Positions 52,419-60,225 of a stretch of DNA of 64,000 nt are shown one piece after another. The notes under the pieces were generated by a model. The model made no database searches. It was given only the letters and a program-made list of their open reading frames with translations, and had not been told where the DNA came from. The DNA is taken from NCBI RefSeq assembly GCF_001723175.1, contig NC_064655.1, positions 2,790,001 to 2,854,000 on the forward strand, written 5' to 3'. The first letter of the stretch is position 1. Each line of letters opens with the position of its first letter. The stretch comes from Penicillium oxalicum. Taxonomy: Eukaryota > Ascomycota > Eurotiomycetes > Eurotiales > Aspergillaceae. The position numbers and the translations under genes are program-made.

Positions 52419-54432
52419 TTAGTCATCTTGGATTCCCGCCCAGTCAAAAGGCTTAGGGTATTCCTCCCCCCCTTTCGCAAGAAAATCGCCGAATTCCACC
52501 TGCCCACTTGCGAGGTCTGAATTGCTGAAGAATGAATGTACAATTTCAGGTTTCTGTACTTTGCCAGACGTGGTAGTTGGGACGGTGTCTGCCGCTCTCA
52601 CCAGTCGTAGCAGGGTAGGCAGCTTATACACCGAAAGCCGTTGTTCCAGTGCTAACCACCTTTGCAAGCTGGAAAGGTTCAAATTTGGTGACAGATCCCA
52701 GTGGTCCTGCTTTGAAGGGCGATAGCTTTCCGGATCTTTCATAACCAGTAGAGCTCCTACTCGATGTCCGGCTTGACGGTCAGGAACACCGACAACAATT
52801 GCTCTTGCTATCAATGGGTGCTTCTCTAACCCATCTTCGACCTCTGGTGCGTATATTTTCCACCCACGGAAGCGGATTACTACGGTGTATCGTTCATAAT
52901 CAGTCACATTGAGCATGCATCATGCGAGGCAAAACGTACCGTCATAGGATGCTCTACCTAGAACGAACAACAAGCCATTCTTGATTCGTCCAATGTCTCC
53001 AGTCTTATAGTAACCTTCCGAGTCAAAGGCCCCATGCATAATAGTGGAATCCCAGGAAAGATATCTGTCTATCTTAGTCGTTGGCTCGAATTCTTTTAGC
53101 ATCTTTCACTCACTTTTTGAACATAACTGGTCCCTTTATGCATATCTCTCCCGTATCACTTATTTTGGCATCTATATATGGCATGATGCTTCCGCAGCAA
53201 TCCTATGTTGATCAGTCCTCATCAGTGTGTACCATGTAGAAAGAGGTGACGGTACTGACAGGCTCCCTTTCGGCCACAGTCTCATGTCTTTGCATTGACA
53301 CCGCGGCGAGTGTTTCTGTCATGGCATAAACGACAACAAGTGGACGGCCACCTCGGAGCTTCTCCCACGTAGCTTGAGTAGATGAATGAACCCTCATTCC
53401 TCCGGTGAAAATCATACGCATAGAGTCTATACCATGCAACAATGCTCTTGATTGTGACAGAGGCCACGTTCTCTGGGCCATGGAAACCTTTTCTGCTAGC
53501 GCATCAAGGACATTTGGGGGTAAAATCATTGATCTTACATCACCTTTCTGCAAACGCTGTGTGAGCCAGTCGAGGCTAAAAACAGCTCTGCAGAATTCGA
53601 TGCACGCTCCAGAGATAACACCCGCAACGCAATATGAAAATCCAGCAGCCCAATGAACGGGAGACGTGTGAAGCATGATATCATCTTCAGACGTTCTCAA
53701 CGACTCTGCACGTTTGGAAATCCCAATCTCTACTGCACGGCGAGTGTGTAAGACACCTTTGGGAAGACCTGTGGTCCCAGATGTCTGCAGGAGAACAAAT
53801 CCTTTACTCGACTCGATTGGAGTTCCCTCGGATTGGAGCGTGAACCGAAGGTTCACCGGCAATTCCGACAACATCATGTCAAATGAGAAAATCCTGGTAC
53901 TGGTAAGCTCAGCTATTGCTTCTGCGTTTTTTACCATTCTTGGCACCGTTGCCAGGAGGGAGGCATTGCACAAGTGCATAATATAGCATCCTTCCTCTGG
54001 AAGCACGGTCGGAGCTTTCAAAAAAATAAATCAGACGGGATCCAAACATCACCGTGGGCGAGAAATTGACTTTCACTTACAAAGAGGTACTGTAGTGGCC
54101 CCCAGAGCATATAAGGCAAATAGAAGTACAGTAAACGAATAACCAGCATCGGCAAGCACAGCCACAAAAACATCCACGTCGGGCTCTTTGAGCCGCTGTC
54201 TCGCTATATCGTCAAGCTGATAGTAAATCTTTTCCTTTACTGTTATCACGTCGAAGAGAAAACGTTCCACATTAGCCTCCTTGCTATTAGGCACGTCTCT
54301 GATAAGCAGTGTTTTGCTCCTTGTCTGCCAACGATGAAATATGTAGTCAAAGAACAGACCCTGGGGGACTTTTAGCAGCGTGGTCCCAGACATGACTTCG
54401 ACTTTTTGTGCTTGGAAGGATGAATGGGTCAT
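52419..54432 (-). CDS. Acyl-CoA synthetase / acyl-AMP ligase (ANL superfamily)
   Basis: Five exons (54432-54081, 54014-53260, 53202-53114, 53064-52940, 52879-52419) give 593 residues, the normal size for this family. Introns are 66, 57, 49 and 60 bp. The 49-bp one removes an apparent stop after VMFKK and restores KKYLSWDST. Core motifs are intact: the ATP P-loop LLQTSGTTGLPKGV, YAMTETLAAV, the hinge-region YYKTGDIG, VIRFRGWKI and TTTSGKVQKPE with the C-terminal lysine needed for adenylation. The enzyme would activate a carboxylic acid as an acyl-adenylate, and probably as a CoA thioester. The substrate cannot be told from sequence. No carrier protein, reductase or peroxisomal SKL-type C-terminus is seen. 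It is transcribed away from the cystathionine gamma-synthase paralogue and shares a 745-bp promoter region with it, which suggests joint use. Confidence 0.92.
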
Positions 54433-55177
54433 TGGGATCCTATATCACTTGGAAAGCTAGCATACTACGTTCGAACGCCGCAAGATAGGTGGATATCAGG
54501 AAAAGGATACATCTGTGCCCTTCGGTCCTTACTACTTCACGCAACCCCCACACCGCTACGTTGCTGTGTCCCTGCGGAGAAAACAGGCTGGACTTCATGC
54601 AGGCGGAGAAAAAGAATTACCATTCTTAAACATAACGGTACTCGCACAAGGTATGGTTTCACCCTGCATAATACGATTTAAGGGTCCCACTGTATTTTTT
54701 GCTGAAAGAAGAGTGGTATCCAAACGCATAAAGACACTTTACGTTTTAGATTCCGAAGTAAAGGACCTGAAAAACAACTTCGTATCGATTTGTTCATTCA
54801 TTTGTGTATTTTCAAGACAATTACGCTATTGGTATAAAGGACGGGTCCCCCGCCAGCTTACCAGGTAGAGTACAGTAGAAACAAGGATGCAGACGTGGAA
54901 AAAAGCAGCGCTGCAACCTAAGCCCAAATCCAAAAATAGTGAAGATGCGGTGAGGCGAGGAGGAAGTAAGAAAGTTCATGCATGTTCACTGGAAGCTTTC
55001 GAGTAGTGCAGGTAGCATGCAGTCGACCTAAGCGAGGGCGCTTGGCATTTGCTTGGTGGGTGGCTTCTCCAATTTATATCTTCGTTTCGAGATTCCTACC
55101 CAAGTCCGTTTTTTAATGTTACGATCTTTCTTACATACTATTGTTCAGTTGCAAGCATCCTAGGTCTTGAGGTCAAC
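54433..55177. promoter_or_regulatory. Divergent promoter region, ligase and CGS paralogue
   Basis: This 745-bp interval separates two divergent start codons and must carry both promoters. No clear TATA box or perfect paired CGG site was found by eye. No coding frame here has supporting features. Confidence 0.5.
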
Positions 55178-58281: not shown

Positions 58282-60225
58282 ATGGAGATCCCAGCCAACT
58301 GCACTGTGCTCGTGGTAGGAGGCGGACCAGGAGGGTCATATACCGCTGCAGCACTTGCCCGCGAAGGGATCGATGTTGTTCTTCTTGAGGCAGATGGATT
58401 TCCTCGGTAAGCCGCTACGTGCATTCCCCAGAAAATGATTTGAAGTTGAGTATGGGCTAAGTTGACGGATTGTTTGAAATCAGGTACCATATTGGGGAAA
58501 GCATGCTTCCATCGTTCCGACACTTTCTGCGCTTTATCGATCTAGACTCGGCGTTTCTTAATTACGGCTTCACAGTAAAAGTAAGTCAACAATATTCCTA
58601 CCTACTCCCATCTTGGCTCTGACAAGGAGCCGGTCATAAATAGAATGGTGCAGCATTCAAGCTTGTCCAAGACAAGCGAGCGGGATGTAAGAATTTCATC
58701 TGTTTTTGTGGGGTGTGCCACTATTCAGTTCACGTACTAAACTATGCGAAGATACGGATTTTCTATCCGCAGGTGGACCAAACAATTTCACATGGAACGT
58801 CACCCGTGCAGAAGCGGACCATCTAATCTTCCAGCATGCAAAAGTGAGCGGAGCGAAGGTGTTTGACGGCGTCAAAGTAAATGACATTAATTTCGACGAT
58901 ATAACCGGTCATCCTTATGCGGCCTCTTACACCCAGAAAGCAACAGGGGCAAGAGGTACAATTGGCTTGCGATATCTGGTCGATGCTAGTGGTCGTGCAG
59001 GACTTATCAACACAAAATATGTCAAGAATCGCACTTACAACGCGGCCCTCAAGAATGTCGCTCATTGGGGTTATTGGAAGGGAACAAAACCCTACCAGGA
59101 AGGAATGCAGAAGGAGAACTCGCCTTTTTTTGAAGCATTGAAAGGTTTGATAACTACCCTATTATTTCTTCATTTTGTTCTTAAGGTGGATTCCTTTGCT
59201 AATCAACGTTTCATTGTATTTCTTAAGACGAGAGTGGTTGGGCTTGGTATATTCCACTCCACGATGGAACGGTCTCTATTGGAGTCGTCATGGATCAGAA
59301 ACTCGCAATATCAAAGCGGAGAGGCATGTGCAATAAGTTTTCCGAGGAGAACAAAAGCCTAGAATCGTTCTACCACCTCTCTCTTCAGCTTGCTCCCACT
59401 CTCATGCAGCTCATATCTGATGGCGAATTGACTGGTTCTGTCAAATCGGCTTCAGACTACTCCTACAGCGCATCCACATATTCAAGCCCCTACATAAGAG
59501 TTGTCGGAGATGCTGGCTGCTTTATTGACCCTTTCTTCTCCTCTGGAGTCCATATCGCTTTGACGGGTGCTCTCTCGGCAGCTGTCACAATATGCGCTGC
59601 TCTGAAAAACGAATGTGAGGAAACCATAGCGGCCGATTGGCATACAAAGAAGATCAAGGGTGTGTACCAGCGGTTCTTGATGGTTGTTTTGAGCGCGTAC
59701 CACCAGATGAGAAGGCAAAATGTTGGGGTCTGGAGTCAACCTGGTGAGGACAATTTTGATGAGGCTTTTGAGCATATCAAAATCAGTAAGTTTATCTCAT
59801 TCAAACTTGAAATCCTGATCCAAAAAACGGGAAGCATTAAATCAACAAATCAAGCTCCCTTCGCCAACTAATCTGTTCTTTACTTAGTTATCCAAGGCAC
59901 GACAGATATAGGGGGCAGTGTTATTTCACAAAGCCGTCTCACAGAAACCCTGGACTTCTGTTCTCAAGCCTGGAATAATGCAGAGCCGAAAGAGAAGGTG
60001 AAGGTATTACAGAAACTTGAAAGTAATGGCTCTTCGTCGGTAGAAGTTGGTCAGTTCTCCAGGGAAGAGTTTGAGACCCTTCGTCATATACAGGCGCGCA
60101 AGGCAATGTGTACAGAGAGTACCTTTGGGCTTGATTGTTTCCACACGGATGTGATTAACGGATTAAGGCCTATTTTGAATCGCGAGAAGCTGGGGCTGGT
60201 ACGTGTTTTGCCTGACGATTTGTGA
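58282..60225 (+). CDS. Flavin-dependent halogenase
   Basis: Six exons (58282-58406, 58484-58580, 58644-58686, 58752-59144, 59228-59785, 59888-60225) give 517 residues, typical of fungal free-standing halogenases. Introns are 63-102 bp with clear branch points. The FAD site VVGGGPGGS lies at residues 11-19, followed by YHIGESMLPSFR. The halogenase signature GWAWYIP (W224, W226, I228, P229) is intact, unlike in ordinary monooxygenases, where it is absent. FTVKNGAAFK carries a lysine at about residue 74, where Rdc2/RadH-type enzymes have their catalytic lysine (from memory). VVGDAGCFIDPFFSSGVH is the second FAD-binding block. Such enzymes use FADH2, O2 and chloride or bromide to halogenate electron-rich, usually phenolic, carbon. 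It lies 1.1 kb downstream of the CGS paralogue on the same strand. No flavin reductase is nearby. Substrate unknown. Confidence 0.94.

What the first reader, a model, noticed from the sequence alone, without database searches (positions are those of the whole stretch)
52419..60225. Candidate compact biosynthetic cluster: ligase, CGS paralogue and halogenase
Seen: three adjacent multi-exon genes, all intact, encode an ANL ligase, a cystathionine gamma-synthase-type PLP enzyme and a flavin-dependent halogenase, with no PKS, NRPS or terpene enzyme in view. Known: CGS-type enzymes recruited to fungal pathways (for example Fub7 in fusaric acid, CndF) form C-C bonds on a homoserine-derived vinylglycine ketimine; free-standing halogenases act on phenols; ANL ligases activate acids. 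Inference: the set could build a halogenated non-proteinogenic amino acid or its acyl conjugate. Core-free clusters are missed by standard cluster finders.
Basis: partly seen in the sequence, partly recalled or inferred. Interest (0 to 1): 0.85.

Follow-up and report, generated by a model that had tools for sequence, protein, structure and literature searches.

The report
Three-gene fungal halogenated-metabolite cluster candidate
A mould chromosome (Penicillium oxalicum) carries three intact neighbouring enzyme genes that together look able to make a chlorinated, unusual amino-acid-type compound without the giant assembly-line enzymes by which such clusters are normally found; the product is unknown.

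Summary
Observation confirmed. The window is from Penicillium oxalicum. Three intact multi-exon genes lie side by side: an ANL ligase (LIG, minus strand), a CndF-type PLP gamma-substitution enzyme (CGS) and a RadH-type flavin halogenase (HAL). CGS is 44% identical to CndF, sits in a clade apart from housekeeping STR2 and keeps the PLP lysine. HAL keeps RadH's K74, D325 and F328. The nearest ketoacyl-synthase match is 298 kb and the nearest NRPS condensation match 137 kb away; 22 of 154 ORFs scanned to the right showed no core gene. The complete trio was seen in this genome alone. P. fimorum shows an 81% ligase and a damaged halogenase on contigs of identical length, and no CGS of matching quality among the listed hits. 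Each gene's closest relative outside P. oxalicum is in a different fungus. Ligase substrate, co-expression and product are untested. Strain 114-2's deposited halogenase has V where RadH needs F328. Best reading: a small, uncharacterised pathway making a chlorinated phenolic or acyl conjugate of a homoserine-derived amino acid. Known enzyme kinds, in a combination not found in the searches made: a good genome-mining target rather than a surprise.

The parts
52419..54432 (-). LIG: ANL-superfamily acyl-CoA-synthetase-like ligase, 593 aa; exons 54432-54081, 54014-53260, 53202-53114, 53064-52940, 52879-52419
   Evidence: spliced model without internal stop; PF00501/PF13193; 81% identical P. fimorum protein P0241
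54433..55177 (.). 745-bp divergent intergenic region shared by LIG and CGS
   Evidence: coordinates of the two start codons
55178..57173 (+). CGS: CndF-type PLP gamma-substitution enzyme, 572 aa; exons 55178-55240, 55316-55410, 55468-56082, 56160-56498, 56567-57173; PLP lysine K359 (assigned by the SLTK motif)
   Evidence: model; PF01053; CndF 465 bits; tree; residues. The listed public protein is a 381-aa fragment, 100% identical (P0001)
58282..60225 (+). HAL: RadH-type flavin-dependent halogenase, 517 aa; exons 58282-58406, 58484-58580, 58644-58686, 58752-59144, 59228-59785, 59888-60225
   Evidence: model; PF04820; RadH 453 bits; K74/D325/F328 kept; WAWYIP and GGGPGG present

Best explanation
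A compact, uncharacterised secondary-metabolite locus. Proposed mechanism: CGS eliminates the leaving group of O-acetyl-L-homoserine (or a relative) on PLP to a vinylglycine ketimine and adds a carbon (or phenol) nucleophile at the gamma carbon, giving a non-proteinogenic amino acid with a 3-amino-3-carboxypropyl unit. HAL, fed with FADH2, chlorinates an electron-rich hydroxylated aromatic ring. LIG adenylates a carboxylic acid and makes a CoA thioester or amide that joins or primes the parts. Shown here: gene integrity, family, clade and key residues. Inferred from families: the three reaction types. Guess: order of steps, that all three serve one product, the acid and the aromatic substrate.
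For: Three intact adjacent genes; CGS falls in the 75-row clade apart from the 40 STR2 rows, inside the 35-row subclade that holds CndF (SH-aLRT 99), and lacks the STR2 YEEG motif and EERxGRNL insert, while a second STR2-type gene on C7 can cover methionine synthesis (inference); HAL keeps the residues reported essential in RadH (PMC10377541, passages); the next-best own-genome match to LIG is 28% identical and HAL is the only such halogenase found; LIG and a damaged HAL on contigs of the same length in P. fimorum; no KS or C domain match within 136 kb.
Against: No second species with all three genes in the listed hits; the best relatives outside P. oxalicum are in three different fungi (P. 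fimorum for LIG, A. unguis for CGS, A. udagawae for HAL); no transporter or regulator recognised next to them; no promoter motif beyond chance; CGS has F at position 450 where the other 115 of 116 rows have Y; strain 114-2's deposited halogenase has V at the F328 position, so the pathway may be decaying in part of the species; no expression or metabolite data.
Confidence: 0.5

Rival explanations
1. HAL (and perhaps LIG) act in trans on products of polyketide clusters elsewhere in the genome, for example emodin-type anthraquinones: HAL chlorinates the ring and LIG activates emodic acid for amide formation with amino acids, as the structures of the chlorinated emodacidamides would require; CGS is then an unrelated neighbour.
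For: A review (PMC9394430, passages) reports emodin-type compounds from P. oxalicum and chlorinated amino-acid amides (emodacidamides C, F, G) plus a chlorinated hydroxymethyl-anthraquinone from Penicillium sp. SCSIO sof101; HAL is the only halogenase of this family found in this genome.
Against: The species of sof101 is not given as P. oxalicum in the passages seen; the amide amino acids named are ordinary (Val, Ile, Leu, Ala), leaving CGS without a role; the nearest KS match is 298 kb away.
Confidence: 0.2
2. The three genes are a chance assembly or the remnant of a larger, partly lost cluster, no longer making a defined product.
For: The complete trio was seen in this genome only; P. fimorum's halogenase is deposited as partial, reads the second exon region in another frame and lacks the WxWxIP part; the 114-2 halogenase differs at an otherwise nearly invariant position (115 of 116 other rows F, one Y); GC3 of the three genes (0.47-0.49) is lower than in GCN1 or the helicase ORFs to the left (0.54-0.56).
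Against: In this strain all three reading frames and splice sites are intact, the catalytic residues tested are present, and LIG and CGS share a divergent intergenic region.
Confidence: 0.22
3. A larger known cluster that merely runs on beyond the window, with a core gene to the right.
Against: The six giant ORF pieces have no Pfam match and are low-complexity, charged sequence in the parts printed; identified matches in the flank are a GH18 piece, an SDR, a CorA-like transporter and a beta-galactosidase; the nearest C-domain match to the right is 389 kb away.
Confidence: 0.04
4. CGS still works as a plain cystathionine gamma-synthase (paralogue of STR2) and the neighbourhood is coincidental.
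For: Same Pfam family; 36-38% identical to the three STR2 rows compared.
Against: STR2-specific residues and insert lost, separate clade, closer to CndF (44%) than to STR2, and the genome has another STR2-type gene.
Confidence: 0.04

Closest known systems
CndF (PLP-dependent gamma-substitution enzyme; PDB 8zif; citrinadin pathway of Penicillium citrinum, organism and pathway recalled)
   Same: Full-length relative of CGS: 235 of 531 residues identical, 465 bits, same 35-row subclade, same absence of the STR2 YEEG motif and insert.
   Different: Not its closest relative: CGS groups with A. unguis and A. wentii proteins. No halogenase or ligase partner of this kind is recalled for CndF; its nucleophile (beta-keto acid, recalled) may differ here.
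RadH-type fungal phenol halogenases (PDB 8gu0)
   Same: 222 of 431 residues identical; K74, D325, F328, GxGxxG and WxWxIP kept.
   Different: RadH's native substrate is monocillin II (PMC10377541, passage; a polyketide, recalled); no PKS lies near HAL.
Malonyl-CoA and oxalyl-CoA synthetases (MatB, AAE3) and other ANL ligases
   Different: Feruloyl-CoA (41.0), benzoate-CoA and MenE (40.6) structures follow closely; 21-23% identity; LIG belongs to a small fungal family, 8 listed members at 36-81% identity.
NRPS-independent fungal pathways such as E-64 and NK13650 (PMC12568646, passages)
   Same: Amino-acid-type products without an NRPS, hence missed by core-gene cluster finders. AnkD, listed with CndF as a fungal vinylglycine-ketimine enzyme (PMC10367076, passage), belongs by its name to the NK13650 pathway (recalled), so a PLP enzyme of this kind has a precedent in such a pathway.
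   Different: Joining enzymes named there are ATP-grasp, amide synthetase, siderophore-type synthetase and a tRNA-dependent enzyme; no halogenase was mentioned in the passages seen. AnkD was not compared by sequence.

Membership tests
CndF-type fungal PLP gamma-substitution enzymes | Full-length homology over N-terminal region and PLP domain | tested here: met
   465 bits, query residues 9-543
CndF-type fungal PLP gamma-substitution enzymes | Groups with CndF apart from housekeeping STR2 | tested here: met
   75-row clade against 40 STR2 rows (P0100, a long branch, beside the latter); 35-row subclade with CndF at SH-aLRT 99 (quick tree, no bootstrap; 114 of the 119 listed proteins P0002-P0120, 5 dropped for length). 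The STR2 label rests on source names and yeast members
CndF-type fungal PLP gamma-substitution enzymes | PLP lysine and neighbours intact | tested here: met
   K359 in 116 of 116 rows; S356, T358, D335, Y261, R522 among columns at least 97% conserved and present. One such column is not kept: F450 where 115 of 116 have Y
CndF-type fungal PLP gamma-substitution enzymes | C-C bond formation from O-acetylhomoserine | not testable with these tools
   needs enzyme assay
Cystathionine gamma-synthase STR2 (housekeeping) | STR2 signature residues YEEG and EERxGRNL insert (as found in the 40 STR2 rows) | tested here: not met
   W-G-R-R at 36-39, insert absent
RadH-type fungal flavin-dependent halogenases | K74, D325, F328 (essential in RadH per PMC10377541, passage) | tested here: met
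   all three present
RadH-type fungal flavin-dependent halogenases | GxGxxG and WxWxIP motifs | tested here: met
   GGGPGG and WAWYIP in the 517-aa model
RadH-type fungal flavin-dependent halogenases | Halogenates a phenol | not testable with these tools
   needs enzyme assay
Malonyl-CoA synthetase (MatB) family | Clear separation from other ANL ligases in sequence or fold score | tested here: inconclusive
Conserved biosynthetic gene cluster | All three genes neighbours in at least one other species | tested here: inconclusive
   only coincidences of contig length could be read: P. fimorum LIG and damaged HAL (8,023,479 bp); Coleophoma cylindrospora CGS and HAL relatives (3,146,600 bp); Talaromyces rugulosus CGS and HAL relatives (7,273,914 bp) but locus tags 01401 and 00286
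Conserved biosynthetic gene cluster | Co-expression | not testable with these tools
   no transcriptome available; a search for PDE_04105 to PDE_04108 found no paper

The most novel reading that the evidence does not exclude
A PKS/NRPS-free fungal pathway in which a CndF-type enzyme attaches a homoserine-derived 3-amino-3-carboxypropyl group to a (chlorinated) phenol or acyl-CoA nucleophile made by its neighbouring RadH-type halogenase and ANL ligase, giving a new class of chlorinated non-proteinogenic amino acids from only three genes.
Probability: 0.2. Interest if true: 0.75.

Novelty: new variant of a known kind. Interest (0 to 1): 0.42.

Why it matters
PKS/NRPS-based cluster finders would not be expected to flag this locus. 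If the trio makes one product, it would join a C-C bond-forming PLP enzyme to a phenol halogenase in three genes, useful both for finding hidden pathways and for biocatalysis of chlorinated amino acids. HAL is the only halogenase of its family found in this genome, so its deletion would directly test which chlorinated aromatic compounds of P. oxalicum depend on it.

Tried and rejected
Core gene to the right: fetched C6 2,840,001-2,910,000. Of the 154 ORFs of 95 aa or more listed for L010-L015, 22 were scanned with Pfam (20; one search added two and repeated two), so small or heavily spliced genes can be missed. The giant ORFs are recalled, not shown, to be the Woronin-body tether leashin. Loci fetched to the left and further right (L016-L018) were not analysed.

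BesB (alkyne amino acid enzyme) as a functional analogue: rejected as specific evidence, because the STR2 protein P0111 hits BesB at least as well (142 bits) as CGS does (128 bits).

Ligase specificity from fold: AlphaFold2 model of P0241 (pLDDT 88.4) and two fold searches put oxalyl- and malonyl-CoA synthetases first, but with feruloyl-, benzoate-, MenE- and amide-synthetase structures close behind: undecided.

Shared promoter motif: one CGG-N5-CCG in each promoter and one CGG-N12-CCG upstream of HAL; three matches over 13 spacings in about 1.85 kb are not more than chance by my own rough count (sites; no shuffled control run).

Scanning many ORFs through an alignment id was abandoned because that mode gives no per-member table. 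One search repeated with a stricter cut-off and added nothing.

Literature: ten searches. 'Penicillium oxalicum' with 'chlorinated' and 'halogenase': 5 papers, none on this locus by title and abstract start; 'cystathionine gamma-synthase', 'halogenase', 'biosynthetic gene cluster' and 'fungal': 0; PDE_04105 to PDE_04108: 0; at least three of 'cystathionine', 'flavin-dependent halogenase', 'gene cluster', 'Penicillium': 72 papers, 12 listed, none on this trio by title and abstract start. A review of halogenation in fungi (PMC9144378, term search only) has no mention of oxalicum, cystathionine or pyridoxal. Only open-licence papers are in that library. Seen as passages only: PMC10367076, PMC12568646, PMC9394430, PMC11122844, PMC10377541, PMC9890505, PMC5177634, PMC9144378. 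The paper on NK13650/AnkD was not held.

Limits of the homologue counts: each search scored the 7,995-7,998 candidates sharing most words and listed 120 of 719 (CGS), 2,919 (HAL) and 3,085 (LIG); absence of a species from a list is not absence from its genome. No P. oxalicum ligase protein is among the LIG hits; the trio is read from the DNA of this one genome. The halogenase search and the RadH search used the 510-aa model before the acceptor correction. Contig lengths were compared by eye. Rows dropped: 5 of 119 in the CGS tree, 2 of 118 in the halogenase columns, all for length.
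Full report
Source. The window is C6:2,790,001-2,854,000 of a 30.77-Mb, 17-contig genome. A 381-aa public protein from Penicillium oxalicum, on a contig of the same length (3,770,306), is 100% identical to part of CGS, so the organism is P. oxalicum.

Genes. I built spliced models by hand with GT-AG introns. LIG is on the minus strand (593 aa), CGS (572 aa) and HAL (517 aa) on the plus strand. LIG and CGS are divergent over 745 bp; CGS and HAL are 1,108 bp apart. 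All frames are intact. The halogenase needed one correction: the acceptor at 58752, not 58773, which restores a stretch like that of RadH and of the A. udagawae homologue. The listed public proteins differ: CGS is held as a 381-aa fragment, and the 114-2 halogenase (475 aa) is 42 residues shorter. No P. oxalicum protein for LIG is among the listed hits.

CGS. The best solved relative is CndF (465 bits; the next is BesB at 128). In a tree of 116 rows the window protein is in a 75-row clade apart from 40 housekeeping-type STR2 rows, with A. unguis (62%) and A. wentii (55%) as closest relatives and CndF in the same 35-row subclade. It lacks residues and an insert that mark the STR2 rows but keeps the PLP site; one otherwise nearly invariant position differs (F450; Y in the other 115 of 116 rows). 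The genome holds one further long gene of this type on C7 (pieces 33-46% identical), presumably the housekeeping STR2. That CndF and other fungal enzymes act through a vinylglycine ketimine is stated in PMC10367076 (passages). I infer that CGS does gamma-substitution; the nucleophile is unknown.

HAL. RadH (8gu0) matches at 453 bits; 222 of 431 aligned residues are identical and K74, D325 and F328 are kept. PMC10377541 (passages) says these are essential in RadH. One search found no other halogenase-model match in this genome beyond one to model positions 1-66. Against a functional pathway in all strains: the deposited 114-2 sequence differs from ours at four aligned positions, one of them F to V at the RadH F328 position (window residue 323), where 115 of 116 other rows have F and one has Y, and another (L509 to M) where 116 of 116 have L. 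This could be a real variant, a partly decayed gene or an error in the record.

LIG. It belongs to a small fungal family: 8 listed fungal proteins at 36-81% identity, then a drop to about 30% or less apart from short local matches. The catalytic lysine region (TTSGK; assignment recalled) is present. Profile and fold searches put malonyl- and oxalyl-CoA synthetases first, with several other ANL kinds close behind. P0241, the P. fimorum homologue, reached the cut-off of none of the 25 NCBIfam families shown. Its substrate is open.

Neighbourhood. Left: a gene with PNP_UDP and TPR domains resembling fungal NLRs (48384-51464), a Bys1-domain ORF, and further left GCN1 and a DHX29-type helicase (both recalled from sequence). 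Right, from 22 of 154 ORFs scanned: a GH18 piece, an SDR, giant low-complexity ORFs, a CorA-like transporter and a beta-galactosidase. No PKS or NRPS core: nearest KS 298 kb, nearest C domain 137 kb. DMATS matches and the one PF19086 match are on other contigs.

Relatives. Within the top 120 hits of each search, no other species shows all three genes. P. fimorum has LIG at 81% and, on a contig of the same length (8,023,479), a damaged HAL that is 132 of 148 identical over residues 275-422 and 89 of 111 over residues 89-199, but reads the second exon region in another frame and lacks the WxWxIP part. Coleophoma cylindrospora has CGS and HAL relatives (44% and 53%) on contigs of one length; adjacency is unknown. 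In Talaromyces rugulosus both are on one contig length but with locus tags about 1,100 apart, which shows that a shared contig proves little. The best hits outside P. oxalicum are in different species: P. fimorum for LIG, A. unguis for CGS, A. udagawae for HAL.

Reading. The most likely meaning is a small specialised pathway whose product is a chlorinated conjugate of a homoserine-derived amino acid (0.5). The main rivals are halogenation in trans of anthraquinone-type products (0.2), prompted by chlorinated amino-acid amides of emodin-type acids reported from a Penicillium strain (PMC9394430, passages), and an accidental or decaying assembly (0.22). The enzyme kinds are known; the combination was not found in print in the searches named under Tried and rejected. 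I rate it a sound genome-mining target rather than a surprise.

Noticed in passing
P0121 (P. oxalicum 114-2, PDE_04107) against window 58282-60225: The deposited 114-2 halogenase has V at the position of RadH F328, where 115 of 116 other rows have F, and M at a position where all 116 have L; possible strain-level variation, decay or record error.
   Followed up: partly
P. fimorum P0183: Halogenase homologue deposited as partial, with the second exon region read in another frame and no WxWxIP part, on a contig of the same length as that of the 81% ligase.
   Followed up: partly
CGS residue 450 (window 55178-57173): F where the other 115 of 116 rows of the CGS/STR2 alignment have Y; meaning unknown.
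   Followed up: no
C6:2,871,573-2,891,655 (L012-L014): Very large ORFs (up to 2,094 aa) without a Pfam match, low-complexity and charged in the parts printed; recalled as the Woronin-body tether leashin, not tested.
   Followed up: no
window 48384-51464: NLR-like gene (PNP_UDP domain and TPR repeats) directly left of the ligase.
   Followed up: no
L010:7620-9998 and L011:13-444, minus strand: GH18 piece with cysteine-rich stretches, apparently a chitinase gene in several exons or a remnant.
   Followed up: no
window 60826-61380, minus strand: 184-aa open frame beside the halogenase without a Pfam match at E 0.1; gene or chance unknown.
   Followed up: no
Coleophoma cylindrospora P0015 and P0196: Relatives of CGS (44%) and HAL (53%) are on contigs of one length (3,146,600 bp); possible second halogenase plus CndF-type locus.
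   Followed up: no
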